Assembly (NCBI GenBank): GCA_003224145.1
Contig: QHYN01000201.1
Span: 1 to 56,763, forward strand
Source: Acidobacteriota bacterium
Lineage (GTDB): Bacteria > Acidobacteriota > Terriglobia > Acidiferrales > UBA7541
Direction: 5' to 3'
DNA: 56,763 nucleotides
Shown here: piece by piece, positions 12,411 to 39,043 of the stretch
How the letters are laid out: each line of letters opens with the position of its first letter
How positions within the stretch are numbered: the first letter of the stretch is position 1
Translations under genes and position numbers: made by a program
Notes under the pieces: model-generated
The model's database searches: none
The model's input: the letters and a program-made list of their open reading frames with translations, nothing else
What the model was told of the DNA's origin: nothing

Positions 12411-12543
12411 GGCGGCGGGATTTGAGAATCTTGGGTTGACCGATGGGGGAATCGAGTCAAGAATGTTTGGACTATGACTAGCCATACAGCGCAAAAACTA
12501 GCGGACAAAAAACTGGCGGTTTTGGGAACGGGGAAGCTCGGCG
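12411..12543 (+). repeat. Direct repeat copy 2: proC upstream region and 5' end
   Basis: The intact partner of 9542-9673. It starts about 63 bases before the proC ATG and runs to codon 23. The functional gene lies on this copy. Differences from copy 1 are a few substitutions and one A. Confidence 0.9.
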
Positions 12544-13313
12544 GGATACTGCTGCGGGCTTACTTGAAGCAGGAGCTGTTCCCGCCGAAACGGGTGACGG
12601 CGACGGTGAAGCACAGCGAGAAGGCCGCGGCGCTCGGGAAAGAGCTGGGCGTGGCGGTGACGACGGAGAACCGCAAGGCGGTGCACGGCGCGGACATCGT
12701 GTTGCTGTGCGTCAAGCCGCAAGTGGTGAGCGAGGTCTTGAAGGAGATCGCGCCGGAACTACATGAGAAGACACTGGTGATCTCCGTGGCGGCTTCCGTG
12801 CCGACGAATTACATCGAGCAACACCTCGGCGGAAAAATTCCCGTGGTGCGCGTGATGCCCAACACGCCTGCGACGGTGGGATGCGGCATGACAGGGATTT
12901 GCCGCGGCGCGCATGCCGGGGCGGAGCATCTGGAGATGGCGCGCGCCATGTTCAATGCCGTGGGGCGCACGGTGGTCGTCGACGAGAAAAATATGGACGC
13001 GGTGACGGGGCTTTCCGCGAGCGGCCCGGCGTTTGCGTACATTATTCTGGAATCGCTCGCGGAGGCGGGAGTCAAAGTGGGCCTGCCGCGGGACATAGCG
13101 ACCTTGCTGGCGGCGCAGACGATGAAGGGTGCGGCAAGCGTGGTGCTGGAGACGGGCGACCATCCCGCGCTGCTGAAGGACGCGGTGACTACACCGGCGG
13201 GCTGCACCATCGATGGAATTCTGGAATTGGAAGAAGGGAAGCTGCGCGTGACGCTCATTAAGGCTGTGGTGAAGGCCACCAGCCGCGCGGGCGAATTGCT
13301 CTTCGAGAAGTAA
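12474..13313 (+). CDS. proC: Pyrroline-5-carboxylate reductase
   Basis: A 279-residue NAD(P)-dependent enzyme that makes the last step of proline synthesis, reducing 1-pyrroline-5-carboxylate to L-proline. The N-terminal Rossmann motif (LAVLGTGKLGGILL), VLLCVKPQ, VVRVMPNTPATVGCG and the C-terminal dimerisation/active-site motif (GLSASGPAFAYIILESLAEAG ... LLKDAVTTPAGCTIDGI) are all present. Length is normal. The gene is 51 bases upstream of nuoA on the same strand with no terminator visible between them. Confidence 0.95.
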   Translation: MTSHTAQKLADKKLAVLGTGKLGGILLRAYLKQELFPPKRVTATVKHSEKAAALGKELGVAVTTENRKAVHGADIVLLCVKPQVVSEVLKEIAPELHEKTLVISVAASVPTNYIEQHLGGKIPVVRVMPNTPATVGCGMTGICRGAHAGAEHLEMARAMFNAVGRTVVVDEKNMDAVTGLSASGPAFAYIILESLAEAGVKVGLPRDIATLLAAQTMKGAASVVLETGDHPALLKDAVTTPAGCTIDGILELEEGKLRVTLIKAVVKATSRAGELLFEK

Positions 13314-13364: not shown

Positions 13365-13739
13365 ATGCCCGGAGCATACCTACCCGTTTTGATCTACGCC
13401 GTGCTGGTGATTGCGTTTCCGGCGGTGACGCTCATCCTGGCGAAGTATATCCGGCCGACGTCAACGTCATACGGGGCGAAGCTGAAACCCTACGAGTGCG
13501 GGATTGCGCCGGAAGGCGGCTCCAGGGGGCGGTACTCGGTGCGGTTTTACATCATTGCCATGTTGTTCGTGATATTTGACGTGGAAACGATGTTTCTCAT
13601 TCCGTGGGCCATCTTGTACCGAGGTTGGGTCGCGGCGCACACGGGGCTGTTTGCGCTGGTTTCGATGTTCGTCTTCCTGGGGATCTTGCTCGTCGGGTAC
13701 GTGTGGCTGTACAAGAAGGGCGCGCTGGAGTGGGCGTGA
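13365..13739 (+). CDS. nuoA: Complex I subunit NuoA (left cluster)
   Basis: A 124-residue three-helix membrane subunit of NADH-quinone oxidoreductase. The conserved loop KPYECGIAPEGG (with the family Cys) and VRFYIIAMLFVIFDVETMFLIPWA, including the acidic residues of helix 2, are present. It sits in the quinone/E-channel region next to NuoH. Ribosome site AGGGGG is close before the ATG. It begins the left cluster. No nuoB gene follows: the 191 bases to nuoC contain no reading frame with the NuoB cysteine motif. Confidence 0.95.
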   Translation: MPGAYLPVLIYAVLVIAFPAVTLILAKYIRPTSTSYGAKLKPYECGIAPEGGSRGRYSVRFYIIAMLFVIFDVETMFLIPWAILYRGWVAAHTGLFALVSMFVFLGILLVGYVWLYKKGALEWA

Positions 13740-13930
13740 TTTGCAAGATTCAATTTGCTTCCACACGCTACCTTTCGAATCCGAAGCTCTTGTGATAGGT
13801 TTTCTGCATGTGTTAGAAACGCGGCGTCTGCAATCACATTGTTGGGTACCGTTTTGTTGGGATCGGAGAGCGATTGTTTTTGCACTCCGGCCGCAGAGGG
13901 TGTGACCGCGGCGCATATTGCACAGGGTCC

Positions 13931-14608
13931 ATGGCCGACGAGCCCAAGGAACAACAACCTTCTGCCCCACCCGCGGGCGAAAAGCCCGCAAGCAGCCCGT
14001 CTTCCGCGTCAGCTCCCCCCGCCAAACCCGCCGCCCCGCCGCCACCGCCGGGCGGCGTACCGGCAAAACCCGCAGCACCTGCGCCTCCCAAGCCGCCTGT
14101 AGTGCTGCAAACACCGCTGAACAATGAACTGGTCGAACGAGTTCGCGCCAAGTTCGGCCCGGCACTTGTGGAAGCCACCGAGGACCGCAAACAAGCAATA
14201 CTCACAGTGGAATGCGCGCGGCTGGCGGAGATTGCGCTTTATTTCCGCGATGAAGAAAAGTTCGACCTGCTCTCCGATTTGACGGCGGTGGATTGGCCGA
14301 AGCGCGAAAAACGGTTCGATGTGGTGCTCAATCTTTATTCTTTTGCGAAAAATGAGCGCTTGCGCGTGAAAGCGCGGGCGGGCGATGGGGAAGAAGTGCC
14401 TAGCCTGCACGGAGTGTGGCCCACGGCAAATTGGCTGGAGCGCGAGGCGTTTGACATGTTCGGGATTGTCTTCGCCGGGCATCCGGACTTGCGGCGCATT
14501 TTGCTGCCCGACGAGTGGAAAGGGTATCCGCTACGGAAGGACTACGACATCATCGAGCAGGACACCGCGTGGGTGAAAGAAAACCTGGGGATCGAGAGCG
14601 GGCAATAA
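13931..14608 (+). CDS. nuoC: Complex I subunit NuoC (left cluster) with Pro/Ala-rich N-terminal extension
   Basis: A 225-residue protein. Residues 1-60 are a low-complexity Pro/Ala/Lys tail ([15 protein letters not shown] and following), not part of the usual subunit. The 30 kDa-subunit domain follows: [28 protein letters not shown], then the signature [43 protein letters not shown]. NuoC packs against NuoD in the peripheral arm. The ATG at 13931 is used; an upstream in-frame start would add 19 unlikely residues. The right-cluster NuoC lacks the tail. Confidence 0.93.
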
Positions 14609-14613
14609 CGAGC

Positions 14614-15756
14614 GTGGCGAAGACCTCCATCACGGATAGCGGCGAGAAGCAGCACACGCTGCTGGGCGCGGATGAACTCATCCTGAATATGGGTCCGCAG
14701 CATCCGTCCACGCACGGGGTGCTGCGCGTCAAGCTCAAACTGGATGGCGAGCGCGTGATCGGCTCCGAATGCATGATCGGATACCTGCACCGGGGCGTGG
14801 AGAAAATCGCGGAGCACCGCACGTACCAGCAATTCGCGCCGTACGTGGACCGCATGGATTACGTCGCGGCGGTCAGCAACGGGCTGGGATATTGCGAAGC
14901 CATCGAGAAATTGCTACTGGTGGAAGCGCCGGTGCGCGCGCGGGTGATTCGAACGATCCTGACGGAGCTCCAGCGGATTGCCAGCCACCTTTTGTGGTTG
15001 GGGACGCACGCGCTGGACATCGGCGCGCTCACACCTCTGTTTTATTGCTTTCGCGAGCGGGAAGAAATTCTGAAAATTTTCGAAAAGTATTGCGGCGCGC
15101 GGTTGACGACGCACGCGTTTCGAATCGGCGGATTGCAATACGAAGCCTACGACACGCTGGAAAAAGACGTCGAGCGGTTTTGCAAGAATTTCGAGTCGCG
15201 CATCGTCGAATACGAAGATTTGCTGACGCAAAACCGCATCTGGCTCGGGCGGACGAAGGGTGTGGGGATTTTGACGTCAGCCGAGGCCATTGCGTTTGGG
15301 GCCACGGGGCCGGTGCTGCGGGCCAGCGGCGTGAAATGGGACATTCGCAAGGCCATGCCGTACGCGGCTTATGACCAATATAAATTTGAAATTCCCGTGG
15401 GCACGGCCGGCGACACCTACGACCGGTACCTCGTGCGCATGGAAGAGATGCGGCAGTCGCGGCTGATCTGCTTGCAAGCGATCGAAAATATCCCCAGCGG
15501 GCCGATTCTCGCGAAGGTGGGCAAAGTGCTAAAGCCGCCGCCGGGAGAGGTCTATCATTCGATTGAAGCGCCCAAGGGCGAATTGGGCTACTACGTTGTG
15601 AGCGACGGGACGGTGCAACCGTACCGCGTGCGCATCCGGCCACCGTCGTTCGTGAATCTGCAATCGTTTGACCGCATGGTGAGAGGACACCTGGTGGCGG
15701 ATGTGGTCGCCATCATTGGAACGCTGGATATCGTTTTGGGAGAGGTCGACCGCTAG
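14614..15756 (+). CDS. nuoD: Complex I subunit NuoD (left cluster)
   Basis: The 49 kDa subunit, 380 residues, which forms the quinone pocket with NuoB. The loop [14 protein letters not shown] carries the conserved quinone-binding His; [60 protein letters not shown] and the C-terminal [12 protein letters not shown] are all conserved. GTG at 14614 gives the family N-terminus; a longer frame would overlap nuoC. Position 5 bases after nuoC indicates one transcript. Confidence 0.95.
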
Positions 15757-15801
15757 TCGCAGCACAAGAATAGCGATTAGATTGACGGAGACATAAGCTC
15801 A

Positions 15802-17178
15802 GTGATGCAGGCCGTAACGCAAGGCACGATCGAATTCCTGAAGCTGTACTGGGCGCCGCTGCTTTGCGGCGTGGTCATTGTTGCGTTTCTGCCGCTGATC
15901 GTCGGATATGTGGTTCTCGTGGAGCGCAAGCTGATGGCAGACATGCAGGCGCGGCTGGGGCCGATGCGCGTGGGGCCGCACGGTTTGCTGCAGCCCATTG
16001 CCGACGCGGTGAAGCTTCTGATCAAGGAAGACATCATCCCGGAGGACGCGGACAAGCTCGTCTTCTGGCTCGCGCCCGTACTCTCGGTAGGAGCCGCACT
16101 GCTATCCTTGGCCGGCATCGCCATCGGTCCGGCTTTCCAAATCGCCAAAGACATCAACATCGGAATTCTTTTTGTCGTGGGCGTCAGCGCCATGGGGATT
16201 TTTGGCATCGTGCTGGGCGGCTGGGCCTCGAACAGCCACTACTCGTTGATGGGCGCTCTGCGGAGTGCGGCGCAGTTGGTGAGTTACGAAACGGCTGCGG
16301 GCATGGCGCTGGTGAGCGGGTTGCTGTTTGCCGGCACGCTGAATATCACTTCCATTGTGGAGGCTCAGCGACAGCAAGGAATTTGGTTCGGATTGCTCGC
16401 ACCGGTGGCGTTTTTCACTTATCTAGTGGCTTCCATCGCCGAAACAAACCGCGCGCCATTTGATTTGCCGGAAGCGGAATCCGAATTGGTCGCAGGTTAC
16501 ATGACGGAATTCAGCGGCTTCCGGTGGTCGCTTTATTTTCTTGCGGAATACACGAACATGATCGTCGTCGCGTCCGTGGCGACGACCCTGTTTCTTGGTG
16601 GATGGCTGCGGCCGTTTCCCCGGACACAGTGGCTGAATTTTCTGGATTTTCTGCCGCCGCTCCTGATGGTGGCCATTGGCCTGTATTGCCTCGTTCGCGT
16701 GCCCAAGCAGCCGGCGCGCGTGCAGCAGTTTTTCATGGTGGCGGTGGCGGGACTGTGTTTTTTCTTGGCCCTGGTCCTGGCGGTGCCGGTGCTTGTGCCG
16801 GTGGTGAACCCATCGCTGGCCGCAGGCGTGAAGCCACTTTACGAGGGGATTCACGGCAGCTTCTGGTTTCTCTTCAAGGTGAGCGCGTACCTTTACTTCT
16901 TCATGTGGCTGCGCTTCACGCTGCCGCGCTACCGCTTTGACCAGTTGATGCGCCTGGGATGGCATTTCCTGATTCCCTTGTCCATCATCAACGTGCTGGT
17001 GATCGGTATCGCCATGATCGTCGGAACGTACTTGCACCTGGAAGGCTGGTGGCTGCTGCTGGCCACGCTTCCTGCGTCCATCATCGCGCTGCTCATCGCG
17101 CTCTTCATTCTGGCTGCCGAACAGAAAAGCGGGCAACAACAGGCGGGGGGAGCCGCCTCGGATTCCTATGCTGGATAA
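15802..17178 (+). CDS. nuoH: Complex I subunit NuoH (left cluster), long form
   Basis: The membrane subunit that joins the quinone site to the pumping arm. Conserved features: ERKLMADMQARLGPMRVGPHGLLQPIADAVKLLIKED, GGWASNSHYSLMGALRSAAQLVSYE, AETNRAPFDLPEAESELVAGYMTEFSG with the acidic E-channel residues, and MWLRFTLPRYRFDQLM. At 458 residues it is over 100 longer than the usual ~330, with an extra hydrophobic pair inserted before the LPRYR segment and added C-terminal helices. GTG at 15802 or ATG at 15805 may start it. The end overlaps nuoJ by 11 bases; nuoI, normally between H and J, is missing. Confidence 0.95.
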   Translation: MMQAVTQGTIEFLKLYWAPLLCGVVIVAFLPLIVGYVVLVERKLMADMQARLGPMRVGPHGLLQPIADAVKLLIKEDIIPEDADKLVFWLAPVLSVGAALLSLAGIAIGPAFQIAKDINIGILFVVGVSAMGIFGIVLGGWASNSHYSLMGALRSAAQLVSYETAAGMALVSGLLFAGTLNITSIVEAQRQQGIWFGLLAPVAFFTYLVASIAETNRAPFDLPEAESELVAGYMTEFSGFRWSLYFLAEYTNMIVVASVATTLFLGGWLRPFPRTQWLNFLDFLPPLLMVAIGLYCLVRVPKQPARVQQFFMVAVAGLCFFLALVLAVPVLVPVVNPSLAAGVKPLYEGIHGSFWFLFKVSAYLYFFMWLRFTLPRYRFDQLMRLGWHFLIPLSIINVLVIGIAMIVGTYLHLEGWWLLLATLPASIIALLIALFILAAEQKSGQQQAGGAASDSYAG

Positions 17179-17686
17179 AGTTATCTTTTACTTTTTTGCA
17201 GGCATTGCGGTGGCCAGCGCGGTGCTCACCGTCACACGGCGCAACGCCGTTCACAGCGCCATCTTCCTGATTACTGCGCTGCTCGCGACGGCAGGGATTT
17301 TCCTGCAATTGCGCGCGGAGTTTTTGTTCATCGTGCAAATTATTCTCTACGTCGGCGGCATCATGGTGCTTTTCGTTTTCGTGATTATGCTCGTGAACCT
17401 GGACGTGGCGGTGCGCCAGATCCAGTTTGCGCGGCAGAAATGGGTGGCTTTGGTTATCTCACTAGCGCTGGCCGCGCAGGTCGGCCTGATGTTCTGGTCC
17501 AGCGGGAGAATGCCCGGGCAGGGGCTGCCTGTGTTGGCGGCGGCTCCGGCAGACAAGCTGCCGCCTAATTCCGAAGAAGTAGCGAAAAGTCTGTTCTCGT
17601 CCTATTTATTACCATTTGAGATTGCTTCGGTTTTGCTGTTGGTGGCCATGGTGGGCGCCGTCGTTATGGCAAAAAAGAGGACATAA
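17168..17686 (+). CDS. nuoJ: Complex I subunit NuoJ (left cluster)
   Basis: A 172-residue membrane subunit with five hydrophobic segments. RRNAVHSAIFLITALLATAGIFLQLRAEFLFIVQIILYVGGIMVLFVFVIML is the conserved block that contains the pi-bulge helix involved in coupling. It overlaps the end of nuoH and is followed 6 bases later by nuoK. Confidence 0.94.
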   Translation: MLDKVIFYFFAGIAVASAVLTVTRRNAVHSAIFLITALLATAGIFLQLRAEFLFIVQIILYVGGIMVLFVFVIMLVNLDVAVRQIQFARQKWVALVISLALAAQVGLMFWSSGRMPGQGLPVLAAAPADKLPPNSEEVAKSLFSSYLLPFEIASVLLLVAMVGAVVMAKKRT

Positions 17687-17692
17687 GAATCC

Positions 17693-17995
17693 GTGCTTCC
17701 GATTGGACACTATCTGTTTCTAGGCCTCGCGCTCTTCATCATCGGAGTGATCGGCGTGGTCACGCGGCGCAATGTAATCATCGTGCTGATGTCCATCGAG
17801 CTGATCCTGAACGCAGTGAACATCAATCTGGTGGCCTTTTCGCGCTTGTACGGTGATGTCGCCGGGCAGGTTTTCGCGCTCTTTATCATCGCAGATGCGG
17901 CAGCGGAGGCAACCGTGGGCCTGGGCATCATCATCGCGTTTTTCCGCAACCGCGAAACGGTGCTGGCAGACGAAATGGATTTGTTGAAGTGGTGA
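17693..17995 (+). CDS. nuoK: Complex I subunit NuoK (left cluster)
   Basis: A 100-residue three-helix subunit homologous to MrpC. The two buried glutamates needed for proton transfer in E. coli are in place at 36 ([12 protein letters not shown]) and 72 ([12 protein letters not shown]). GTG start at 17693; TTG or ATG alternatives are not nearby. Length is normal. Confidence 0.95.
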
Positions 17996-18034
17996 CGCAG
18001 CGCGCGAAACCATGAAGCTAGGAAAGAACATCGC

Positions 18035-20248
<2,214 letters not shown>

Positions 20249-20258
20249 GAGGCGAAGA

Positions 20259-21836
20259 ATGGACTTTGTTGCAAATCACATCTTGAGCGTAGTTCTCTTC
20301 ACCCCGCTCGTCGGGGCGCTGCTTCTGCTCTTCGTTCCGCGCGAGAACGAGAACGCGCACCGCATCGCCGGCAATGTCTTTGGCGTGCTCGGATTTCTCG
20401 TTTCGCTTCCGCTGATTCGCTGGTGGCATCCCGGCGCGAGCAAATTCTCGTTCGAGGAAAACGTTGCATGGATTCCTTCTATCGGCGCGAGGTATCACCT
20501 CGGCATTGACGGCATCAGCTTGCTGCTGGTGCTGCTCACCACATTCCTCGGAATGATCGCCATCCTTTCTTCCTGGAGCGCGATCCACCAGCGCACCAAG
20601 GAATATTACATTCTGCTGCTTCTGCTCCAGACGGGCATGATCGGCGTCTTCATGGCCCTGGATTTCTTCCTCTTCTACGTTTTCTGGGAAGTGATGCTCG
20701 TTCCGATGTACTTCCTCATCGGCGTCTGGGGAAGCGACCGGCGGCTCTACGCGGCCATCAAATTTTTCCTGTACACGCTGGCCGGTTCGGTGGTCATGCT
20801 GCTGGGAATTCTGGCGCTGTACTTCTATGCGCCGTTGCCGGCGGGCGCGACGCGCACGTTTGATGTTCCCACGCTGCTTGCCGGCGCACAGACGTTTTCA
20901 GATCCGCTGAAGGTCTGGCTCTTCTGGGCATTCTTTTTCGCGTTTGCCATCAAGGTGCCGATGTTCCCGTTCCATACCTGGCTGCCGGACGCGCACACGG
21001 AAGCGCCCACCGCGGGATCGGTCATTCTGGCTGGCGTTTTGTTGAAGATGGGCACGTACGGTTTCATCCGCTTTTCACTGCCGCTCTTGCCCACCGACAC
21101 CGCCTTGCGCTCACGAATCATCTCCATCGTTATTTTCCTGTCGCTCGTTGGCATCGTCTACGGCGCTTTGGTCTGCCTGATGCAGAAGGACATGAAGAGG
21201 CTGATTGCTTACAGTTCCGTCAGCCACCTGGGTTTTTGCACGCTCGGAATTTTTGCCCTCACGCCCAACGGCCTTTCCGGCAGCGTGCTTCAGCAGATTA
21301 ATCACGGCATCTCCACCGGCGCGCTCTTCTTGATCGTGGGCGTGCTTTACGAGCGGCGGCACACCCGCATGATTTCCGACTTCGGCGGTTTGGCGACGCC
21401 CATGCCGAATTTCGCGGCGATCTACCTGATCATCAGCCTCAGCTCTCTGGGAATGCCGCTGCTGAACGGCTTCATCGGGGAATTCACCATTCTGCAGGGC
21501 GCATTCCAAGTCAGTAAAGCCTGGGCCGCCTGGGGCGTGCTGGGCGTGATTCTCGGCGCGGCCTATCTGCTGTGGCTCTACCAGCGCGTGATGTTCGGGC
21601 CGGTCACGCAGCCTGCCAACGAACATCTGCCGGACTTGAACCTGCGCGAACTGGCGACGCTTGTGCCGCTCGTGTTTCTGGCGTTCTGGATCGGCATTTA
21701 TCCAAAACCATTTTTTGCGCTGATCGAAAAGCCCGTGGAGAACATTGTCCGGCAGGTGAACCCGAACTTTTATCCTGCGGAACGCGCAAAATTGCCCGTG
21801 CCGGAGCTTCCTTCTGCCGCGGCAGAAACGAAATAA
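20259..21836 (+). CDS. nuoM: Complex I subunit NuoM (left cluster), antiporter-like
   Basis: A 525-residue antiporter-like subunit. E144 (FYVFWEVMLVPMYFLIGVWG) and K232 (AIKVPMFPFHTWLPDAHTEAPTAGSV) match the essential Glu/Lys of E. coli NuoM, and the LIAYSSVSHLGFCTLGI helix follows. Length is close to the family norm. It starts 10 bases after nuoL and ends 9 bases before nuoN. Confidence 0.96.
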   Translation: MDFVANHILSVVLFTPLVGALLLLFVPRENENAHRIAGNVFGVLGFLVSLPLIRWWHPGASKFSFEENVAWIPSIGARYHLGIDGISLLLVLLTTFLGMIAILSSWSAIHQRTKEYYILLLLLQTGMIGVFMALDFFLFYVFWEVMLVPMYFLIGVWGSDRRLYAAIKFFLYTLAGSVVMLLGILALYFYAPLPAGATRTFDVPTLLAGAQTFSDPLKVWLFWAFFFAFAIKVPMFPFHTWLPDAHTEAPTAGSVILAGVLLKMGTYGFIRFSLPLLPTDTALRSRIISIVIFLSLVGIVYGALVCLMQKDMKRLIAYSSVSHLGFCTLGIFALTPNGLSGSVLQQINHGISTGALFLIVGVLYERRHTRMISDFGGLATPMPNFAAIYLIISLSSLGMPLLNGFIGEFTILQGAFQVSKAWAAWGVLGVILGAAYLLWLYQRVMFGPVTQPANEHLPDLNLRELATLVPLVFLAFWIGIYPKPFFALIEKPVENIVRQVNPNFYPAERAKLPVPELPSAAAETK

Positions 21837-21845
21837 ACGCGCCGC

Positions 21846-23390
21846 ATGCATATCCCCATCCTCAGCGCGTTGATGAATTACTTCCAGGGAGATGGCAGGG
21901 TCATCCTTCCCGAGATCGAACTGACTCTTTTTGGACTGGGAATTCTGCTGATCGATTTCACCCTCGGCGTCAAAGAAAGATATCTGAATGCCGGGCTGGC
22001 GCTGTTGGGCACGTTGTTCAGTGCCTACACAGTGTGGAAGCTGCGAATCCCCGTTGACGCCGATGGTTCGCTGCTTGGATTTCATGACTCCGTAGTTGTA
22101 GACCCTTTCTTCCTCTTTTTTGCAGCACTCTTTCTTGCCGCTACTGTGCTCGTGGTTCTGCTCTCGGTGAAATACCTGGAGATTGAAGAAGAGCAGGAAG
22201 GGGAATACTACGCGCTGCTGCTCTTCGCCTGTGTCGGAATGATGTTCATGGCTTCGGGCATCGACCTCATCGTGATGTTCCTTGGCCTGGAGACGATGGC
22301 GCTGAGTTTCTATGTGCTGACCGGCTTCTTGCGCCGGGAAAAGCGTTCCAATGAAGCGGCCTTAAAATACGTCTTGCTGGGGGCCTTCAGTTCCGGAATT
22401 CTCGCGTACGGATTCTCCTTGCTCTATGGTCTGAGCGCTTCCACAAACATAGTTAGAATCAGCGCGATGCTGGGCAGGCGCAGCGCGTTCATAAGCGCTA
22501 TTTTGCATAGCCCGCAGCCTGCAACGGCGCAGTTCAATCCCTTCCTGCTTCAGTTGTTGCCTGTCCTGGCTTTCGTCTTGATAGCGGTGGGACTGTTTTT
22601 TAAAGTGGCAGCCGTGCCGTTTCACCAGTGGGCGCCGGACGTTTATGAAGGCGCGCCGACGCCGGTCACCGTGTACGTCAGCGTGGCCTCCAAAACGGCG
22701 AGTTTCGCTCTGCTTCTGCGATTGTTCCTCGTGGTGTTTGGCGCCACTCAGGTGAACTGGATGTATCTCGTCGCCGGAATTGCGGTTGCGTCACTCACCT
22801 GGGGCAACCTCGCCGCCCTGACACAGACCAACGTGAAGCGGCTGCTCGCCTACTCTTCCATTTCCCATGTGGGCTATATCCTGCTCGGCCTTGTCGCCGG
22901 GAACGACACCGCCCGCACGGGAATTGCGTTTTACCTATTCGCGTATGTGTTCATGACCGCGGGCGCTTTTGCGGTGCTCATCGTCCTGCGGCAGAAAGGC
23001 CTCATCGGCGAGGAACTCGAAGACCTGAACGGGTTGTACCAGCGCAGCCCCGCCGCTGCCGTCTTGCTCTTGATCTTCATGCTTTCGCTCTCAGGCATTC
23101 CCCCCACCGCCGGCTTCATGGGCAAGTATTTCATTTTCCTCTCGCTGATCGAAACCAAGCATCCCGTGCTCGCGGTTTTCGCCGTGCTCTACATCGTGCC
23201 TGCGCTGTACTACTACTTCCGCATCGTGGTGCACGCCTGGCTCAAGCAGCCGGGCGAGGCGCCGCGTATCGCAATGAGCAGCGCGCAAGCCGTGGCCCTC
23301 GGCGTCGCATTATTTGTCACGCTCGCGGCCGGGTTGTATCCTGAGCCGTTCACGCGGCTCGCTCACTATGCCCTCACCTTCGGACCATAA
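21846..23390 (+). CDS. nuoN: Complex I subunit NuoN (left cluster), antiporter-like
   Basis: A 514-residue antiporter-like subunit. The conserved Glu lies in MFLGLETMALSFYVLTGF and the Lys in LFFKVAAVPFHQWAPDVYEGAPTPVTVYVS; RLLAYSSISHVGYILLG and the Lys in AGFMGKYFIF are also present. A Ser/Arg-rich loop (NIVRISAMLGRRSAF) is longer than in the right-cluster copy. The last 23 bases overlap the following atpZ gene, so complex I and F0 genes here are one transcription unit. Confidence 0.95.
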   Translation: MHIPILSALMNYFQGDGRVILPEIELTLFGLGILLIDFTLGVKERYLNAGLALLGTLFSAYTVWKLRIPVDADGSLLGFHDSVVVDPFFLFFAALFLAATVLVVLLSVKYLEIEEEQEGEYYALLLFACVGMMFMASGIDLIVMFLGLETMALSFYVLTGFLRREKRSNEAALKYVLLGAFSSGILAYGFSLLYGLSASTNIVRISAMLGRRSAFISAILHSPQPATAQFNPFLLQLLPVLAFVLIAVGLFFKVAAVPFHQWAPDVYEGAPTPVTVYVSVASKTASFALLLRLFLVVFGATQVNWMYLVAGIAVASLTWGNLAALTQTNVKRLLAYSSISHVGYILLGLVAGNDTARTGIAFYLFAYVFMTAGAFAVLIVLRQKGLIGEELEDLNGLYQRSPAAAVLLLIFMLSLSGIPPTAGFMGKYFIFLSLIETKHPVLAVFAVLYIVPALYYYFRIVVHAWLKQPGEAPRIAMSSAQAVALGVALFVTLAAGLYPEPFTRLAHYALTFGP

Positions 23391-23661
23391 GCCGGACAAA
23401 GACGAATCGCCGAGACCAGCGCTCCGGAAGGTGCAAAACACTTCTAGCCAACTCGCCACCGCGATGGAGTTGCCATTTACCTTTGTTGCGGCTGTTGCTG
23501 TGGGTGGGCTGATCGGCTATTTTCTCGACCAGTGGCTTCACACAGGCCCATGGCTGATGGTCCTCTTCGGCTGTTTCGGCTTTGCCGGGGGGATTCTCGA
23601 AATCTCTCGAAGGTTTCGTCCCAGAGATTCGAGTAGCAATGACGACAAGCCCGACTCCTGA
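23368..23661 (+). CDS. atpZ: AtpZ/ATPase gene 1-like membrane protein
   Basis: A 97-residue protein with a charged N-terminus and two hydrophobic segments (LPFTFVAAVAVGGLIGYFLDQWL; WLMVLFGCFGFAGGILEISR), the pattern of the AtpZ/AtpQ accessory protein of F0F1 ATPase operons. AtpZ is thought to act with AtpI in c-ring assembly or divalent cation transport. ATG at 23368 lies inside the nuoN 3' end; the next gene starts 23 bases before its stop. Confidence 0.8.
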   Translation: MPSPSDHKPDKDESPRPALRKVQNTSSQLATAMELPFTFVAAVAVGGLIGYFLDQWLHTGPWLMVLFGCFGFAGGILEISRRFRPRDSSSNDDKPDS

Positions 23662-24070
23662 GCCGGCAATCGCATCTCCCGTCGGTGAAAGAACCGTCCG
23701 CCGGATTGCCTACTTGATTCCCCTTTTTGGGGTGGTGGGTGGACTTCTGGCCGCTCTACTGCACCGGTTGGATTGGGCCGAAGGCCTTGTCCTCGGCTCA
23801 GGCCTCGCGTGGCTTAATTTCCGGTGGTTGAAGCGAGGGTTAGAGGCTTTTATTGCCGCTGCTGGCGGGCAAGTCGGCACCGAAAAACCTCGCCCGTCTG
23901 GCGCGACCTACCTAGCCGCGCTTTTCCGCTACGTCTTGTTAGGCTTCGCCGTGTATGTTATTTTTAATTATCTGCACGTTCCACTTGTAAGTATTGTGCT
24001 CGGGTTGTGTGCTTTCGCAGCCGCAACAATCACGGCGAGTGTGTGGGAAATTCTGCAACCGGTTGAATGA
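23639..24070 (+). CDS. atpI: ATP synthase accessory protein AtpI
   Basis: A 143-residue protein with four hydrophobic segments (IAYLIPLFGVVGGLLAALLH; GLVLGSGLAWLNFRWLKRGL; ALFRYVLLGFAVYVIFNYLHV; SIVLGLCAFAAATITASVW), matching ATP synthase subunit I, a non-essential chaperone for c-ring assembly. Its position between atpZ and atpB supports this. The sequence itself is poorly conserved in the family. ATG at 23639 was chosen over a longer frame that reads through atpZ. Confidence 0.75.
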   Translation: MTTSPTPEPAIASPVGERTVRRIAYLIPLFGVVGGLLAALLHRLDWAEGLVLGSGLAWLNFRWLKRGLEAFIAAAGGQVGTEKPRPSGATYLAALFRYVLLGFAVYVIFNYLHVPLVSIVLGLCAFAAATITASVWEILQPVE

Positions 24071-24100
24071 GGAGTTGAGCCCATCGCGGGCGCGCAGAAG

Positions 24101-24919
24101 ATGGAAGAGAATCTCAGTCCGATCACACACCTGGTGAACCACTACCTTGGGCCTCTGGCTTTGGCAATACTTCACGCACTGCACATTCAGCCAGAGAACC
24201 CCGACCTTCCGATCCCGGAGCACGTCATTATGGGATGTTTGGTCCTTGTTCTGGTCACTATTCTGGCCCTAATCCTGAAATCGCGCCTTTCTGTCGAGAA
24301 GCCCGGTGCAATGCAGCAGATCGCAGAGCTTTTGATTACCAATCCCATGCGTCTTGGGATTCAGGATATCCTTGATGAGAGTGCTGGAAGTAACGCGCGC
24401 TCGTATATCTATGCTGTAGGGACCGTCAGTCTTTTCATTCTCTTCTCCAACTTGTTTAGCCTGTTCCCTTGGTTTTCTGCGCCTACTGGCAATGTTACTG
24501 TGCCACTGGCATGTGCCACCGTTACCTTCCTCTATTTCAACTGGCAAGGGATACGCCACCACGGGGCGCTCAATTACGCCAAGCATTTTGCGGCTGGGAC
24601 GCAGTGGTGGATTGCCTGGCTGATTCTACCTGTCGAAGTCATTAGCACGCTGGCACGGTTGTTATCTCTTACTGTCCGCCTCTATGCCAACATATTTGCA
24701 AGCGACATGATCTACGTTCTGTTCTTGGGTTTGCTCGCTCAGGCAACCACGATCGCTTGGGAAAAATCCCCCGTGGCAGGCATTCTTGTGGGAGTGTTTC
24801 CCGCGCTGATCCCGCTTTTGTTTATTGCCTTGCACCTTCTTGTGGCTTTTGTGCAGACAATCCTATTCACGGTCCTGCCGGCCTCCTATCTCGGGATGGC
24901 CACGGCTGAGGAGCATTAA
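24101..24919 (+). CDS. atpB: F0 ATP synthase subunit a
   Basis: A 272-residue membrane stator subunit providing the ion half-channels. The essential Arg is in SLTVRLYANIFASDMI (family pattern LxxRLxxNxxxG); the C-terminal helix (ALIPLLFIALHLLVAFVQTILFTVLPASYLGMA) contains the conserved His/Gln-equivalent region LHLLVAFVQ. It ends with a typical AEEH tail. F1 genes and subunit b are not in the window, so the ATP synthase genes of this genome are split. Confidence 0.95.
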   Translation: MEENLSPITHLVNHYLGPLALAILHALHIQPENPDLPIPEHVIMGCLVLVLVTILALILKSRLSVEKPGAMQQIAELLITNPMRLGIQDILDESAGSNARSYIYAVGTVSLFILFSNLFSLFPWFSAPTGNVTVPLACATVTFLYFNWQGIRHHGALNYAKHFAAGTQWWIAWLILPVEVISTLARLLSLTVRLYANIFASDMIYVLFLGLLAQATTIAWEKSPVAGILVGVFPALIPLLFIALHLLVAFVQTILFTVLPASYLGMATAEEH

Positions 24920-24927
24920 ATCGATAT

Positions 24928-24950
24928 TTGCCGGTGACGTCTGCCGGCAA
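24928..24950 (+). promoter_or_regulatory. Hairpin between atpB and atpE
   Basis: TTGCCGG (24928-24934) pairs with CCGGCAA (24944-24950) around a 9 base loop, just after the atpB stop. No T-tract follows. Such a stem could protect the downstream atpE message or be a processing site, helping the c subunit to be made in the excess its ring requires; this is inference. Confidence 0.4.
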
Positions 24951-25025
24951 GTTGCCGTTCCAGCGTGAGCCTGGCTGCACGGTGTCCGGGGAACCACCTC
25001 CTGGCGGCACTCATAAGGAGGCAGT

Positions 25026-25340
25026 ATGAAGAAGTGGAGCATGCTGTTGATGGCAATAATTACCGCCATGGCCTTTGCCCCGGCGGCGTTTGCGCAGGGA
25101 GGCACTGGAGGAGTCGGAGAAGGGCATTCCGCATTGTGGATTGCCGCTGCGTTTGGCATGGGTATCGCTGCGTTTGGTTGCGGGCTGGCACAGGGTAGAA
25201 TCGGCGCAGCAGCCCTTGAGGGTATTGCACGCAATCCGGGGGCTGCCAAGAATATATTTACTCCGATGTTGCTCAGCTTGGCCTTCGTAGAAACGCTGGT
25301 CTTGTTCACATTTCTGATGATCATTCTCAAGGTGAAGTAG
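25026..25340 (+). CDS. atpE: F0 ATP synthase subunit c
   Basis: A 104-residue proteolipid. The first 23 residues (KKWSMLLMAIITAMAFAPAAFA) form a cleavable-looking leader, unusual for E. coli c but seen in other phyla. The hairpin has helix 1 (GMGIAAFGCGLAQGRIGAAALEG), the polar loop IARNPGA, and helix 2 with the ion-binding glutamate E89 (SLAFVETLVLFTFLMI). A strong GGAGG 5 bases before the ATG suggests high translation. It is the last gene of the left transcription unit. Confidence 0.95.
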   Translation: MKKWSMLLMAIITAMAFAPAAFAQGGTGGVGEGHSALWIAAAFGMGIAAFGCGLAQGRIGAAALEGIARNPGAAKNIFTPMLLSLAFVETLVLFTFLMIILKVK

Positions 25341-25708: not shown

Positions 25709-27172
25709 TCAGTGGCCGAGAAGATTCGGTTGCAGAATGAAGTTAATGACGGGATTTGGGTACACGCCGAACAAAATGGTTCCGGCGAAGGTAATCAGAA
25801 GCGCGAGGTTCACGCCAACAGGGAACTGCACCGGGGCCAGGGCTGCAGCCTCCGCGCTGGGCTCGCGCATGTACATCACCACAATCACGCGCAAGTAGTA
25901 GTACGCGCCAATCACGCTGTTAATCGCCATCAGCACGGCGAGCCATAGCAAGTGCGAGTTCACCGCTGCCTTGAAGATGTAGAACTTGCCGAAAAAACCA
26001 GCCGTCACCGGCAGCCCGAGGAGCGACAGCAGGTACACGCTCAACATGGCCGCCACGAACGGCTGGCGCTGGGAAAGCCCCGCGTAATCGTCTAGCGAAA
26101 GATTCTTTTCGCCCGCGCCGCCGAGCTGCGAAACGACGGTGAACGCTCCAAGCTTTACCAGCGCGTAGCTCAGCAGATAGAAGAGCACCGCCGCGTACGC
26201 CGGTGCCGCGCCGACGTCTGAATTCGAAGTCATCGTCGTGACGGCAGCAAACGCCACCAAAATGTATCCCGCGTGTGCGATCGAGCTGTAGGCCAGCAGC
26301 CGCTTGATGTTCGTCTGCACCAGCGCGCCCAGATTGCCCACGAACATCGTCAGCACCGCAAGCATCCAGAAAGCCCAGAACCAGAACTTCGTGGCCGCCG
26401 GAACCGTTGCGAAGATGCGAAGCAGCAGCGCAAACGCCGCGGCTTTCGGACCTGCGGAGAAAAGCGCCGTGACCGGCGTCGGCGCGCCTTCGTACACGTC
26501 CGGCGTCCACACCTGGAACGGCGCCGCGGCCACTTTGAATCCAAGCCCGATTAAAATCATGGCGAGGCCCAGCTTCAGCAATGTGCTCGTCGTGTCGGCC
26601 CCCGCCATTTTGTCCAGCATGGTCGTGCCCGTCGCGCCGTACACCAGCGCAATGCCATAAAGAAAAAACGCCGTCGCGAACGACCCCAGCAGGAAATACT
26701 TCATTGCCGATTCGCTCGATTTCAACGAATCGCGCCGGTAGCCCGCCAGGATGTAACTCGAAATCGAGCTCATCTCCAGTCCGATGAACGCCGTGAGCAA
26801 CTCTTGCGCGCTTGCCAGTACGCCCATGCCCGCCGTCGCGAAGAACAACAACGCGTAAAACTCCGGAATCGGCAGCCGCTCGCGGTCCAGATACGGCCCG
26901 GCAGCCAGCAGCACCAGAAACGCGACCGTGCCCACGAGCAGCCGGAAGAAGAAACTGAACGAGTCCGACTGCACCAGTCCGTAGAAGCCCGGCCCGCCGT
27001 GAATCAACGCGAAGACCGAAGCAGCGGTTCCCGCGAGCGAGCCAAGCAACGCCAGAAACGATAAAAAGTGCCGGTTGCGCACGAACGGCTGCACCAGCAT
27101 CAGCAGCACGCCGAAGCCGCACCAGATCAGTTCCGGCAGCACGCGTTGAATGTCGATGGCGCGGGGCAGCAT
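25709..27172 (-). CDS. nuoN: Complex I subunit NuoN (right cluster), antiporter-like
   Basis: A 487-residue antiporter-like subunit. The conserved Glu is in FIGLEMSSISSYILAGYRR and the Lys in GLGFKVAAAPFQVWTPDVYEGAPTPVTALFS; KRLLAYSSIAHAGYILVAFA and FFGKFYIF are conserved. Its start shares one base with the nuoM stop (TAATG). It is clearly diverged from the left NuoN throughout, so the pair are not a recent copy. Confidence 0.95.
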   Translation of the reverse strand: MLPRAIDIQRVLPELIWCGFGVLLMLVQPFVRNRHFLSFLALLGSLAGTAASVFALIHGGPGFYGLVQSDSFSFFFRLLVGTVAFLVLLAAGPYLDRERLPIPEFYALLFFATAGMGVLASAQELLTAFIGLEMSSISSYILAGYRRDSLKSSESAMKYFLLGSFATAFFLYGIALVYGATGTTMLDKMAGADTTSTLLKLGLAMILIGLGFKVAAAPFQVWTPDVYEGAPTPVTALFSAGPKAAAFALLLRIFATVPAATKFWFWAFWMLAVLTMFVGNLGALVQTNIKRLLAYSSIAHAGYILVAFAAVTTMTSNSDVGAAPAYAAVLFYLLSYALVKLGAFTVVSQLGGAGEKNLSLDDYAGLSQRQPFVAAMLSVYLLSLLGLPVTAGFFGKFYIFKAAVNSHLLWLAVLMAINSVIGAYYYLRVIVVMYMREPSAEAAALAPVQFPVGVNLALLITFAGTILFGVYPNPVINFILQPNLLGH

Positions 27173-28764
27173 TAACGGATTCCCAGCCTTTCGATCGAGA
27201 TTGTGCGTGACGACTGCGAGGAATCAGTTTTCGTCAACGGTTTTGTTCGTGAGCGAGCGCGCGCCTCGTAGGCCCGTTGTGGTTCCACCTGGTCCATGAC
27301 AGTTTGCGTGGCGGCGGCCGTGCGGCGCGTGATAAACACCGAGCCGATGCCCATCCACAGCGTCACCACCGCCATGGTTGCGAGTATCCACTTCTCGCGC
27401 GCCGAAGCGTCGGGCAGCGTGCGATTTTTCTCCACCGTAATTTCGCCAAAGAAGACGCGCTGATACGACCACAGCAGGTAGCAAGCGGAAAGAATCACGC
27501 CGAGCGCCGCCCACGAGGCCCATCCCCAATGACGCTGGTAGGTGCCGAGCAGAATCAGAAATTCGCCGACGAAGCCATTGAGCATCGGCAAGCCCAGCGA
27601 AGAAAGTGCCACGAACAGGAAGAACGCCGCCAGTTTCGGCATAGGCGTCGAAAGCCCGCCAAACTCGCTGATCTCAAACGTGTGCCGCCGGTCGTAGAGC
27701 ATCCCCACAAGCAAAAACAGCGCGCCGGTCGAAATCCCGTGCGCCAGCATCTGGTACACCGCGCCTTGCATGGAAATGTTGTGAAAGGCGAAGATGCCCA
27801 GCACTACGAAACCGAGGTGGCTCACCGAAGAATACGCGACCAGCTTTTTCAGGTTCGGCTGCACCATGGACACCAGCGCGCCATAAATAATTCCGATGAT
27901 CGCCAGCACCGCGACCCAACGCGCCGCGCGGTGCGAAGCCTCTGGGAAGAGCGGCAGGCAGAAGCGCATCATGCCGTAGGTGCCCAGCTTCAGTAGCACG
28001 CCCGCGAGCATTACCGAACCTGCCGTGGGTGCTTCCACGTGCGCGTCTGGCAGCCAGGTGTGCAGCGGGAAAAGCGGCACCTTGATCGCGAACGCCAAAA
28101 AGAACGCCAGGAAGAGCAGCATTTCTGTTCGCGGCGCAAGGACGAGCAAGCCATTCGCGAGCGTTTGCTGAATCGCCGGCAAATCGAATGTTCCGGTGGC
28201 GTTGTACAGCCAGATGATGCCCACCAGCATCAGGATCGAGCCCGTCATGGTGTACAGCACGAACTTCACCGCGGCGTAGACGCGGCGCTCGTGGCCCCAG
28301 ATGCCGATCAGGAGGGCCATGGGAATCAGCATCACTTCCCAGAAGAGGAAAAAGAGAAAAAGATCGAGGGAGAAAAATACGCCGACGACGCCCACCTCGA
28401 GCAGTAGCAGCATCACGAAGAATTCTTTCACGCGGTTCTGGATGCTGCTCCACGAAGCCAAAACCGAAATCGGCGTGAGGAATGTCGTCAACAGCACGAG
28501 AAACATGCTGATGCCGTCCACACCGAGGTGGTAGTTAATCGGCGGCGCGCTGATCCACTTCGCAAATTCTTCCAGTTGATATCCGGTTGCGCCAACGGGC
28601 ACGCCACGCAGCAGTATCAGGGAGAAAAGAAATTCGGCTGTGGAAACGATCATCGCAATAGAGCGGATGAACTTGTGATCGTCGCCGCGCAGCAGCATCA
28701 GTGCCAGCGCGCCCACGGCGGGGAAGAAGATCAGCACCGAAAGCAGATGCCCGCCGTGCAGCAT
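27172..28764 (-). CDS. nuoM: Complex I subunit NuoM (right cluster), antiporter-like
   Basis: A 530-residue antiporter-like subunit. E143 (FFLFWEVMLIPMALLIGIWG) and the Lys in AIKVPLFPLHTWLPDAHVEAPTAGSVMLAG are retained, with KKLVAYSSVSHLGFVVLGIFAF following. The C-terminus has an unusual basic, Ser/Thr-rich tail (YEARARSRTKPLTKTD and onward) absent from the left copy. ATG at 28764 overlaps the nuoL stop by one base (TGATG), so a longer frame starting at 28851 is rejected. Confidence 0.95.
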   Translation of the reverse strand: MLHGGHLLSVLIFFPAVGALALMLLRGDDHKFIRSIAMIVSTAEFLFSLILLRGVPVGATGYQLEEFAKWISAPPINYHLGVDGISMFLVLLTTFLTPISVLASWSSIQNRVKEFFVMLLLLEVGVVGVFFSLDLFLFFLFWEVMLIPMALLIGIWGHERRVYAAVKFVLYTMTGSILMLVGIIWLYNATGTFDLPAIQQTLANGLLVLAPRTEMLLFLAFFLAFAIKVPLFPLHTWLPDAHVEAPTAGSVMLAGVLLKLGTYGMMRFCLPLFPEASHRAARWVAVLAIIGIIYGALVSMVQPNLKKLVAYSSVSHLGFVVLGIFAFHNISMQGAVYQMLAHGISTGALFLLVGMLYDRRHTFEISEFGGLSTPMPKLAAFFLFVALSSLGLPMLNGFVGEFLILLGTYQRHWGWASWAALGVILSACYLLWSYQRVFFGEITVEKNRTLPDASAREKWILATMAVVTLWMGIGSVFITRRTAAATQTVMDQVEPQRAYEARARSRTKPLTKTDSSQSSRTISIERLGIR

Positions 28765-30788: not shown

Positions 30789-31090
30789 CAGAGTTTGAGC
30801 AAGTCAACACGCTCGACATTGAGCGTCTGCCGATTGCGCGCAATCAAAATGATGATTCCCAGGCCCACGGCCGCTTCCGCCGCCGCCACTACGATCACGA
30901 ACAGCACGAAAACCTGGCCGTCCAGCCTGCCGAATGCCTGGCTAAACGCCACGAACGCCAGATTCACCGCGTTCAGCATGAGCTCGATGGACATGAAAAT
31001 GGTGATGAGGTTGCGCTTGAAAATGAACGCAAACACACCGAGGCCAAACAAAATCGCGCTGAGAATCACGTAATAGTTCGTCGGCACCAT
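30788..31090 (-). CDS. nuoK: Complex I subunit NuoK (right cluster)
   Basis: A 100-residue three-helix subunit with the essential glutamates at 36 (FMSIELMLNAVN) and 72 (VVAAAEAAVGLGI), exactly as in the left copy. ATG start one base after the nuoJ stop; its stop overlaps the nuoL start. Confidence 0.95.
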   Translation of the reverse strand: MVPTNYYVILSAILFGLGVFAFIFKRNLITIFMSIELMLNAVNLAFVAFSQAFGRLDGQVFVLFVIVVAAAEAAVGLGIIILIARNRQTLNVERVDLLKL

Positions 31091-31091
31091 C

Positions 31092-31595
31092 TCAGCTCTT
31101 CTCCCGCTGCGCCAGCACCGTCGCGCCCAGAATCGCCACCAGAATCAGGAACGAGGTCAGCTCGAACGGATAGACGAAGTCCTTGAAGACCATCTCCGAA
31201 ATTCCTTTGGTGGAAGACAGCACGCCCGTCTGCGCCGTTGCCTGCACGCTCGCTCCCGACTTGGCGACCGTCGCGGCCACGAATCCTGCCAGCGCCAGCA
31301 CCAGCAGCAAGCCCGGCGCTCCCGCCATCTTCGATAGGTTGGTGTGTTCTTCCACGCCCGCGTTGAGCAGCATGATCACGAATACGAAGAGCACCATGAT
31401 CGCGCCACCGTAGACGATAATCTGTACCGCGGCGACGAACTCCGCGCCCATCAGCAGATACAATCCCGCAAGCGCCACCATCACCACGATCAGCGAGAGC
31501 GCGCTGTGAATCGGATGCTTTTGCAGAATCAGGCTCACCGCGCCGATCACCGCGAGCGCCGCCAGCGCAAAGAAAACGACGAGCGGGGCCGTCAT
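31092..31595 (-). CDS. nuoJ: Complex I subunit NuoJ (right cluster)
   Basis: A 167-residue membrane subunit. KHPIHSALSLIVVMVALAGLYLLMGAEFVAAVQIIVYGGAIMVLFVFVIMLLN is the conserved coupling block. The ATG at 31595 overlaps the nuoH stop (ATGA), so the longer open frame to 31724 is not used. nuoI is absent between nuoH and this gene. Confidence 0.94.
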   Translation of the reverse strand: MTAPLVVFFALAALAVIGAVSLILQKHPIHSALSLIVVMVALAGLYLLMGAEFVAAVQIIVYGGAIMVLFVFVIMLLNAGVEEHTNLSKMAGAPGLLLVLALAGFVAATVAKSGASVQATAQTGVLSSTKGISEMVFKDFVYPFELTSFLILVAILGATVLAQREKS

Positions 31596-32812: not shown

Positions 32813-32814
32813 GG

Positions 32815-35049: not shown

Positions 35050-35070
35050 GGATTCCTATCGCGGGGCCCT

Positions 35071-36885: not shown

Positions 36886-36887
36886 GG

Positions 36888-38084: not shown

Positions 38085-38605
38085 AGCGTGCTGCTCTTCC
38101 TGAAGAGCTCTCCCGTGCTCGGCACATCGCGGAAGCCTTCGACAGGATAATCTCTGCGCAGCGGATAGCCTTCCCAATCGTCCGGGAGCAGAATCCGCCG
38201 CAAATCGGGATGCCCGGAAAAACGAATGCCAAATAAGTCGAAAATCTCGCGCTCCAGCCAGTTTGCTCCCGGCCACACCGGCACGAGCGAATCCACGACG
38301 GGATCATCGCCGCTCACGCGCACTTGCAAGCGAACCTTGTCGCGTCTGGGAATGGACACCAGGTGGTAGTTCAATTCGAATCGCGGCCCCACGGGGTAAC
38401 GGTCCACGCAGGTGGCGTCCGTAAGCAGGTTGAACTGCAGCTTGGCGTCCGCCCGGCAGCGCCCCGCGGCGGGCCGCAGCAGTTCGCGCGGCACCACGAT
38501 GGTGGTCTCGCCTCGAAATTCAATGATTTCCGAGATTGCCTGTGGGTTCCACGACCGCAAACACTCAGCTACAACACTAGCTTTTTGGTTGGAAGACTCC
38601 GTCAC
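38081..38605 (-). CDS. nuoC: Complex I subunit NuoC (right cluster)
   Basis: A 174-residue 30 kDa-type subunit. FNLLTDATCVDRYPVGPRFELNYHLVSI and [44 protein letters not shown] are the family signatures. The start is GTG at 38605, 24 bases after the nuoA stop, a gap too small for nuoB. It lacks the Pro/Ala-rich tail of the left copy. Confidence 0.94.
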   Translation of the reverse strand: MTESSNQKASVVAECLRSWNPQAISEIIEFRGETTIVVPRELLRPAAGRCRADAKLQFNLLTDATCVDRYPVGPRFELNYHLVSIPRRDKVRLQVRVSGDDPVVDSLVPVWPGANWLEREIFDLFGIRFSGHPDLRRILLPDDWEGYPLRRDYPVEGFRDVPSTGELFRKSSTL

Positions 38606-38629
38606 GATTTCAAATCCTGCGAGCGCCGG

Positions 38630-39001: not shown

Positions 39002-39013
39002 GGGCGAATTGCT

Positions 39014-39043
39014 ATAATAACGATTGAGACGGCGCTGGGTCAA
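39014..39043 (-). promoter_or_regulatory. Candidate sigma-70 promoter for the right complex I operon
   Basis: On the minus strand TTGACC (39038-39043) and TATTAT (39014-39019) are separated by 18 bases, each one mismatch from consensus. Transcription would begin around 39007, leaving a leader of only about six bases before nuoA. The same AT-rich box also reads TATAAT on the plus strand, but no -35 was found in that direction. Confidence 0.4.

What the first reader, a model, noticed from the sequence alone, without database searches (positions are those of the whole stretch)
13365..25340. Left complex I lacks the NADH module and runs straight into ATP synthase F0 genes
No nuoE, F or G is present in the left cluster, yet antiporter-like and NuoK residues needed for pumping are intact. 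The nuoN end overlaps atpZ by 23 bases, followed by atpI, atpB and atpE, and then a terminator-like hairpin. So a proton-pumping arm with an unknown electron donor is co-transcribed with subunits a and c of the ATP synthase. Lack of N-module genes is known in ferredoxin- or F420H2-linked complexes, but those normally keep B and I.
Basis: partly seen in the sequence, partly recalled or inferred. Interest (0 to 1): 0.65.

Follow-up and report, generated by a model that had tools for sequence, protein, structure and literature searches.

The report
NADH-less complex I beside ATP-synthase genes
A soil acidobacterium carries a second, stripped-down respiratory complex I without its NADH-reading part, set directly in front of two ATP-synthase membrane genes; the missing pieces lie elsewhere in the genome, and some close relatives lack the complex but keep the ATP-synthase genes, so this looks like an old gene neighbourhood rather than a new machine.

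Summary
Left cluster: proC, nuoA-C-D-H-J-K-L-M-N, atpZ-I-B-E, one strand, no nuoE/F/G/B/I; with an ATG start atpZ overlaps nuoN by 23 bases; a terminator-like hairpin follows atpE. The genome is a subdivision-2 Acidobacteriota. B and I are not missing: two nuoB and two nuoI lie at four other places. NuoI2 groups with NuoI encoded inside left-type clusters of other Acidobacteriota (100/100). nuoB2 and nuoI2 track the left cluster in the genus (B2: 16 of 18 genomes with it, 0 of 7 without; I2: 17 of 18 and 1 of 7). [quoted passage not shown] F1 and b genes are on another contig; this atpB is the only one. The nuo-atp order is old (25 of 36 Acidobacteriota loci) but not obligatory: 10 of 36 genus genomes lack the left complex, and all eight of these that were opened keep atpZIBE. 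Donor unproven; ferredoxin favoured. Oddity: three species keep only a left-type NuoN that lost a key lysine yet is under purifying selection.

The parts
12474..13313 (+). proC, pyrroline-5-carboxylate reductase; 51 bases before nuoA, upstream neighbour in many genus loci
   Evidence: TIGR00112 276 bits, cut-off 197; synteny
13365..13739 (+). nuoA (left)
   Evidence: PF00507 1.3e-32
13931..14608 (+). nuoC (left), Pro/Ala-rich N-terminus; ORF open from 13874, start uncertain
   Evidence: PF00329, TIGR01961 over cut-off
14515..15756 (+). nuoD (left); longest ORF given, true start uncertain, conserved part from about 14670
   Evidence: TIGR01962 496 bits over cut-off; solved relatives
15802..17178 (+). 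nuoH (left)
   Evidence: PF00146 8e-111
17168..17686 (+). nuoJ (left)
   Evidence: PF00499 1e-38
17693..17995 (+). nuoK (left), both membrane glutamates present
   Evidence: PF00420; alignment to right NuoK
18035..20248 (+). nuoL (left)
   Evidence: TIGR01974 705 bits over cut-off
20259..21836 (+). nuoM (left)
   Evidence: TIGR01972 620 bits over cut-off
21846..23390 (+). nuoN (left); E149, K253, K283, K427 present
   Evidence: TIGR01770 419 bits over cut-off; residues
23368..23661 (+). atpZ (AtpZ/Atp1-like), overlaps nuoN by 23 bases
   Evidence: PF09527 8e-14; overlap
23639..24070 (+). atpI; ORF open from 23582, start uncertain, overlaps atpZ
   Evidence: PF03899 2e-7
24101..24919 (+). atpB, F0 subunit a; only copy found in the genome
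   Evidence: PF00119; single match in G000
25026..25340 (+). atpE, F0 subunit c
   Evidence: PF00137
25370..25392 (+). terminator-like hairpin followed by a T-rich tail
25709..39043 (-). convergent right complex I: nuoA-C-D-EF(fused)-G-H-J-K-L-M-N, also without B and I

Best explanation
The left cluster encodes the membrane arm and most of the Q-module of a second, 11-subunit (NuoEFG-free) complex I-like enzyme. Its two other iron-sulphur subunits are made from solitary genes elsewhere (nuoB2 on contig C65, nuoI2 on contig C123). Electrons most likely enter at NuoI2 from a low-potential soluble carrier, favoured to be ferredoxin reduced by 2-oxoacid:ferredoxin oxidoreductases. They would pass through the iron-sulphur clusters of NuoI2 and NuoB2 to quinone at NuoD/NuoH and drive proton pumping through K/L/M/N. 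The cluster sits in an old co-directional block, proC-[nuo]-atpZIBE, whose a and c subunits assemble with F1, b and delta made from another locus. Shown here: gene content, existence and assignment of B2/I2, the single atpB, conserved order and repeated absence. Inferred: one transcript, pumping, the donor.
For: Family hits. Two nuoB and two nuoI in the genome. Own NuoI2 and 16 NuoI from left-type clusters of other Acidobacteriota form one clade at 100/100. B2 in 16 of 18 left-bearing and 0 of 7 left-lacking genomes, I2 in 17 of 18 and 1 of 7 (Fisher p 7e-5 and 3e-4, not corrected for relatedness). No EF or G on the same strand in any of 31 Acidobacteriota left loci with at least 8 kb before NuoN; NuoD was seen in all 31, so the usual place of EFG between D and H is covered. 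G040 (99% complete) has one NuoD, of the left kind; its only NuoF-domain and NuoG-type hits sit together and belong to a formate dehydrogenase (TIGR01591 908 bits, cut-off 666; NuoG model 340, cut-off 470). Two genes over the cut-off of TIGR03710, the 2-oxoacid:acceptor oxidoreductase alpha model (full name recalled), in this genome. Two b-type genes, delta and F1 on C224; one atpB.
Against: The donor is not tested. TIGR03710 is over cut-off in all 10 genus genomes that lack the left complex too, so it does not track the complex. Of 8 neighbours of nuoB2 and nuoI2 scanned, none is a recognised redox partner of complex I, and 3 have no family. I2 remains in one left-lacking genome (G003). Two of the 7 left-lacking genomes (G002, G015) show no NuoB at all, so they are weak witnesses. 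In the NuoI tree the left clade sits on a very long branch and the NuoI of the full right-type cluster of G033 joins next to it, weakly (67/57). The assembly is in 359 contigs, so B2/I2 cannot be linked physically to the cluster.
Confidence: 0.68

Rival explanations
1. The left complex borrows the NuoEF/NuoG N-module encoded in the right cluster and works as a second NADH:quinone oxidoreductase.
For: The genome has one complete NuoEF+NuoG set in the right cluster, and left and right Q-module subunits B, C, D, I are still 41-57% identical.
Against: No left locus of 31 carries EF or G; G040 has the left complex with no NuoG over cut-off; each complex seems to have its own B and I.
Confidence: 0.17
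2. The nuo-atp junction reflects a functional coupling of the pump arm with F0, by shared dosage, regulation or contact.
For: The order is found in 25 of 36 Acidobacteriota loci, and nuoN and atpZ overlap with ATG starts in 16 of 28 loci.
Against: Eight left-lacking genus loci were opened: all keep atpZIBE, four with no left nuo gene between it and proC, three behind a lone NuoN, one (G002) behind a NuoN cut by the contig end. The F1 genes are elsewhere.
Confidence: 0.08
3. The left cluster is a decaying partial complex without B and I.
For: No B or I in the cluster; repeated absence in relatives.
Against: B2 and I2 exist with their cysteine motifs and track the cluster; intact proton-path residues; NuoN dN/dS 0.06-0.24 in 7 left-type pairs.
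Confidence: 0.04
4. The electron donor is another NADH module, such as the NuoEF / cNMP-domain iron-sulphur / multihaem cytochrome c set on contig C84.
For: A second fused NuoEF (675 aa) beside a protein with a HoxU-like N-terminus exists in the same genome.
Against: NuoF-domain hits outside the right cluster also occur in left-lacking genomes such as G006 and G002 (these were not opened), and the C84 set is beside cytochromes, not nuo genes.
Confidence: 0.05

Closest known systems
[quoted passage not shown] Desulfitobacterium hafniense DCB-2
   Same: Q-module and pumping arm without NuoEFG; donor debated, ferredoxin proposed (passages of PMC11238625 seen)
   Different: Here B and I are scattered, a complex I with an N-module coexists, and the genes run into atpZIBE in a soil acidobacterium
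Canonical 14-subunit complex I (right cluster of this window)
   Same: Paralogous subunits 37-57% identical
   Different: The left cluster has no N-module, and its B and I are distinct
Cyanobacterial NDH-1 (photosynthetic complex I)
   Same: NuoN's best solved match is 6hum_B, NAD(P)H-quinone oxidoreductase subunit 2; no NuoEFG (start of the abstract of PMC9414918 seen)
   Different: Accessory subunits of NDH-1 were not looked for
Methanogen Fpo (F420H2 dehydrogenase)
   Same: Shares the 11 core subunit families (recalled)
   Different: The Fpo models listed for these proteins all score below cut-off, e.g. FpoD 358 of 600 and FpoL 437 of 1050 bits

Membership tests
[quoted passage not shown]
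   0 of 31 related loci
[quoted passage not shown]
   A, C, D, H, J-N in the window; B2 and I2 elsewhere
[quoted passage not shown]
   sequences read by eye; NuoN residues; NuoK; motif meaning recalled
[quoted passage not shown]
   needs biochemistry
14-subunit NADH:quinone oxidoreductase | Dedicated NuoEFG with the complex | tested here: not met
   sharing with the right cluster not excluded
Fpo F420H2 dehydrogenase | Fpo subunit models over cut-off | tested here: not met
[NiFe] hydrogenase (group 4) | Large subunit over hydrogenase cut-offs | tested here: not met
   NuoD equivalog model over cut-off; NiFe models 18-27 bits
F-type ATP synthase with split genes | a and c here, single atpB, with b, delta and F1 elsewhere | tested here: met
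   the number of atpE copies was not searched

The most novel reading that the evidence does not exclude
In three species of this genus (G006, G015, G047) the left complex is gone except for its NuoN, which stays between proC and atpZIBE. All three have lost the TM7 lysine (K253 to L), kept by the other 25 sequences, and two have also lost the TM8 lysine; yet pairwise dN/dS among them is about 0.15-0.17. The bold reading is that a pump-dead complex I subunit was recruited as an accessory membrane protein of the ATP synthase (assembly, c-ring insertion or regulation), with the nuoN-atpZ overlap as its entry point.
Probability: 0.12. Interest if true: 0.75.

Novelty: new member of a known kind. 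Interest (0 to 1): 0.38.

Why it matters
It settles what first looked like an impossible enzyme: an NADH-less complex I whose two missing iron-sulphur subunits are encoded far away. Of 65 relatives with a left-type NuoD, 63 have more than one NuoD match, so two complexes I side by side are common here. The donor of 11-subunit complexes is an open question (passages of PMC11238625), and a genus in which the complex is present, absent, or reduced to one subunit gives a natural test set. The lone, pump-dead NuoN before the F0 genes is a concrete candidate for recruitment of a complex I part.

Tried and rejected
Ferredoxin-donor test by co-loss: TIGR03710 is over cut-off in all 10 left-lacking genus genomes, so there is no correlation.

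Neighbours of nuoB2 and nuoI2 as donor clues: of 8 scanned, two short-chain dehydrogenases, a GGDEF protein, a GalT-like protein, a DUF218 protein and three without a family.

The C84 NuoEF / multihaem module as donor: NuoF-domain hits outside the right cluster occur in left-lacking genomes too; those copies were not opened.

Terminator and promoter scans gave no excess over shuffles.

Lysine K283 as a mark of the lone NuoN: not specific, since two left-bearing genomes (G050, G061) have also lost it. Only K253 sets the three apart.

Left without right: only G040 was opened. G068 (79% complete) and G071 (90%) also list only left-type NuoD, but were not followed.

Species tree: G063, of another genus, was drawn beside G011 on a long branch, and G076 has a very long branch; I do not trust these places. 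The tree rests on 33 rows of NuoN, NuoM and AtpB, several partial, and is rooted at the midpoint. The label 'LEFTCL' printed for L200, L202 and L209 is wrong (other phyla); they were relabelled. Identical proteins were dropped before the count of 53 rows.

Literature: the listings show no title or abstract start on the nuoN-atpZIBE order of Acidobacteria or on a lone NuoN with ATP synthase, and one search returned no paper; subscription papers are not held and most listed papers were not opened. Papers seen by passages only: PMC5900883 (no mention of NADH or complex I, korAB in select genomes), PMC6018796, PMC11238625, PMC12361115.

Full report
What is there. The window is contig C7 of a 4.79 Mb, 359-contig genome. 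Its closest named relatives are subdivision-2 (gp2) soil Acidobacteria MAGs; the class name Terriglobia is from recall and from some record titles there. On the + strand: proC 12474-13313, then nuoA, C, D, H, J, K, L, M, N (13365-23390), atpZ, atpI, atpB, atpE (to 25340), each identified by Pfam or NCBIfam. No nuoE, F, G, B or I is in this run. A convergent cluster on the - strand (25709-39043) holds a second complex I with a fused nuoEF and nuoG, also without B and I. With an ATG start, atpZ overlaps nuoN by 23 bases. In 28 loci where a left-type NuoN and atpZ are neighbours (own included), 16 have an ATG start overlapping by 17 (14 loci) or 23 bases (2 loci), and 6 of the other 12 have a TTG start overlapping by 11. 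The terminator-like hairpin with the most G-C pairs lies just behind atpE, though such sites are not more frequent than in shuffles. RNA evidence is not available.

Where are B and I? The genome has two nuoB (contigs C46 and C65) and two nuoI (C67 and C123), all apart from both clusters. In relatives nuoI2 lies inside the left-type cluster (G025, at a contig edge, and G031, G032, G033, G037, G040), as does nuoB2 in G040. In G033 a complete right-type cluster has B and I that match B1 and I1 best, but its NuoI is a long branch that the tree puts weakly beside the left clade (67/57). In that tree of 53 distinct NuoI rows the own NuoI2 groups with 16 NuoI encoded within left-type clusters at 100/100, and the own NuoI1 lies outside. 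Among the 25 genus genomes, with B1/B2 told apart by identity and I1/I2 by score band, B2 occurs in 16 of 18 with the left cluster (missing in G014, 63% complete, and G020, 77%) and 0 of 7 without; I2 in 17 of 18 (missing in G014) and 1 of 7 (G003) (Fisher p 7e-5 and 3e-4, not corrected for shared ancestry). Of the 7, G002 and G015 show no NuoB at all, so they tell little; G002 keeps a NuoN-like gene at a contig end and is counted as without, having no left NuoD. So the left complex is most likely A, B2, C, D, H, I2, J, K, L, M, N.

No N-module. Of 31 Acidobacteriota loci with at least 8 kb before left NuoN, none has EF or G on the same strand and all have NuoD; NuoI is inside in 10 and NuoB in none, though 8 kb may stop short of a nuoB. 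G040, 99% complete, has a single NuoD, of the left kind, one NuoF-domain hit and one NuoG-type hit. Its NuoEF/NuoG-like genes sit together, and the large one is a formate dehydrogenase alpha subunit (908 bits, cut-off 666) that misses the NuoG cut-off (340 of 470). A left complex without any NADH module of complex I therefore exists among these relatives, in the one case that was opened.

Residues. NuoN has Glu149, Lys253, Lys283 and Lys427. Left and right subunits align at 37% (J) to 55% (L), and B1/B2 at 57%. Residue roles and helix numbers are recalled from general knowledge of complex I.

ATP synthase. This atpB is the only one found in the genome; 39 of 41 genomes have one match and 2 have none. 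Two b-type genes, delta, alpha, gamma, beta and epsilon lie in order on contig C224. The a subunit made here must thus serve that F1.

How old and how tight is the link? Among 56 Acidobacteriota loci, 36 have at least 6 kb after left NuoN, and 25 of these have atpB on the same strand within 5 kb; several of the 36 are close relatives of the window. Of 13 such loci from other phyla it is 2, both Poribacteria with a full atp operon. Left-type NuoD (68% identity or more) is listed in 65 of 101 genomes. In the genus 26 of 36 genomes carry the left complex (24 by NuoD, G020 and G042 by NuoN) and 10 do not: G001, G002, G003, G004, G006, G015, G021, G041, G047, G049; some of these are only 73-85% complete. 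Eight of the 10 loci were opened. Four have proC and atpZIBE with no left nuo gene between (G003, G004, G021 close together; G001 with about 2.5 kb without a recognised gene between). Three keep a lone NuoN between proC and atpZIBE (G006, G015, G047). G002 ends in a diverged NuoN at the contig edge (G006 and G015 first). Six further left-lacking loci of the same family (G053, G054, G065, G066, G075, G076) also keep atpZIBE convergent to the right NuoN, while G062 and G072 do not show it in the stretch taken. A tree needs at least three label changes for 'no left'. The F0 genes clearly do without the pump.

The lone NuoN. The three form one clade by their right-complex and AtpB proteins (100/100), and none has a left NuoD. 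K253 is Leu in all three and Lys in the other 25 sequences; K283 is Met in two, but is also lost in two left-bearing genomes (G050, G061); E149 is Gln in one; K427 and H260 stay. Pairwise dN/dS is 0.153/0.911, 0.216/1.415 and 0.224/1.416, about 0.15-0.17, within the range of 7 left-type NuoN pairs in the same call (0.06-0.24); dS is high, so the ratios are rough. A gene that has lost a lysine thought essential for pumping but is kept by selection is the most unusual thing here.

Mechanism. I take the left enzyme for an 11-subunit complex I-like quinone reductase fed at NuoI2 by reduced ferredoxin. Enzymes that could supply it are coded (two TIGR03710 genes over cut-off) but are also kept by all 10 left-lacking genus genomes, so the donor stays inferred. 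PMC11238625 (passages) describes the 11-subunit kind, the open question of its donor, and ferredoxin and PFOR as candidates. PMC12361115 (passages) reports complete complex I in most Acidobacteriota; PMC6018796 (passages) reports near-complete NADH dehydrogenase 1 operons in peatland Acidobacteria; the passages seen do not mention this arrangement.

Verdict. Observation right. Interpretation partly right: an N-module-free pump before F0 genes, but with B and I present elsewhere and no sign of dependence. A new member of a known kind, with one odd side finding.

Noticed in passing
L130:7729-9300 (-), L129:7918-9483 (-), L230:11296-12834 (+): Lone NuoN between proC and atpZIBE in three species that lost the rest of the left complex; TM7 lysine lost, purifying selection kept.
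   Followed up: partly
L123 (own contig C84) 6276-12968 (-): Fused NuoEF beside an iron-sulphur protein with HoxU-like N-terminus and cyclic-nucleotide-binding domains, and a multihaem c7-type cytochrome: a possible NADH to multihaem-cytochrome module.
   Followed up: partly
window 25026-25340: Subunit c has Gln aligned with a Gln of its best solved match, 2wie, and Thr after the carboxylate Glu (ET, where 2wie has EA); a sodium-binding motif is conceivable from recall.
   Followed up: no
L208 and L216 (Poribacteria): NuoN followed within a few kb by a full atpBEFHAGDC operon, a separate nuo-atp neighbourhood.
   Followed up: no
window 45451-47223 (+): TPR protein with weak multihaem cytochrome matches (MtrC/F-like, cytochrome c3) near a histidine kinase at 43749-45338.
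   Followed up: no
L231:12576-13895 (-), genome G002: Diverged NuoN at a contig end with K283 to S, H260 to Q and K427 to R but K253 kept; perhaps a second, separate lone NuoN.
   Followed up: partly
window 35071-36885 (-): The right complex I has NuoE and NuoF fused into one protein.
   Followed up: no
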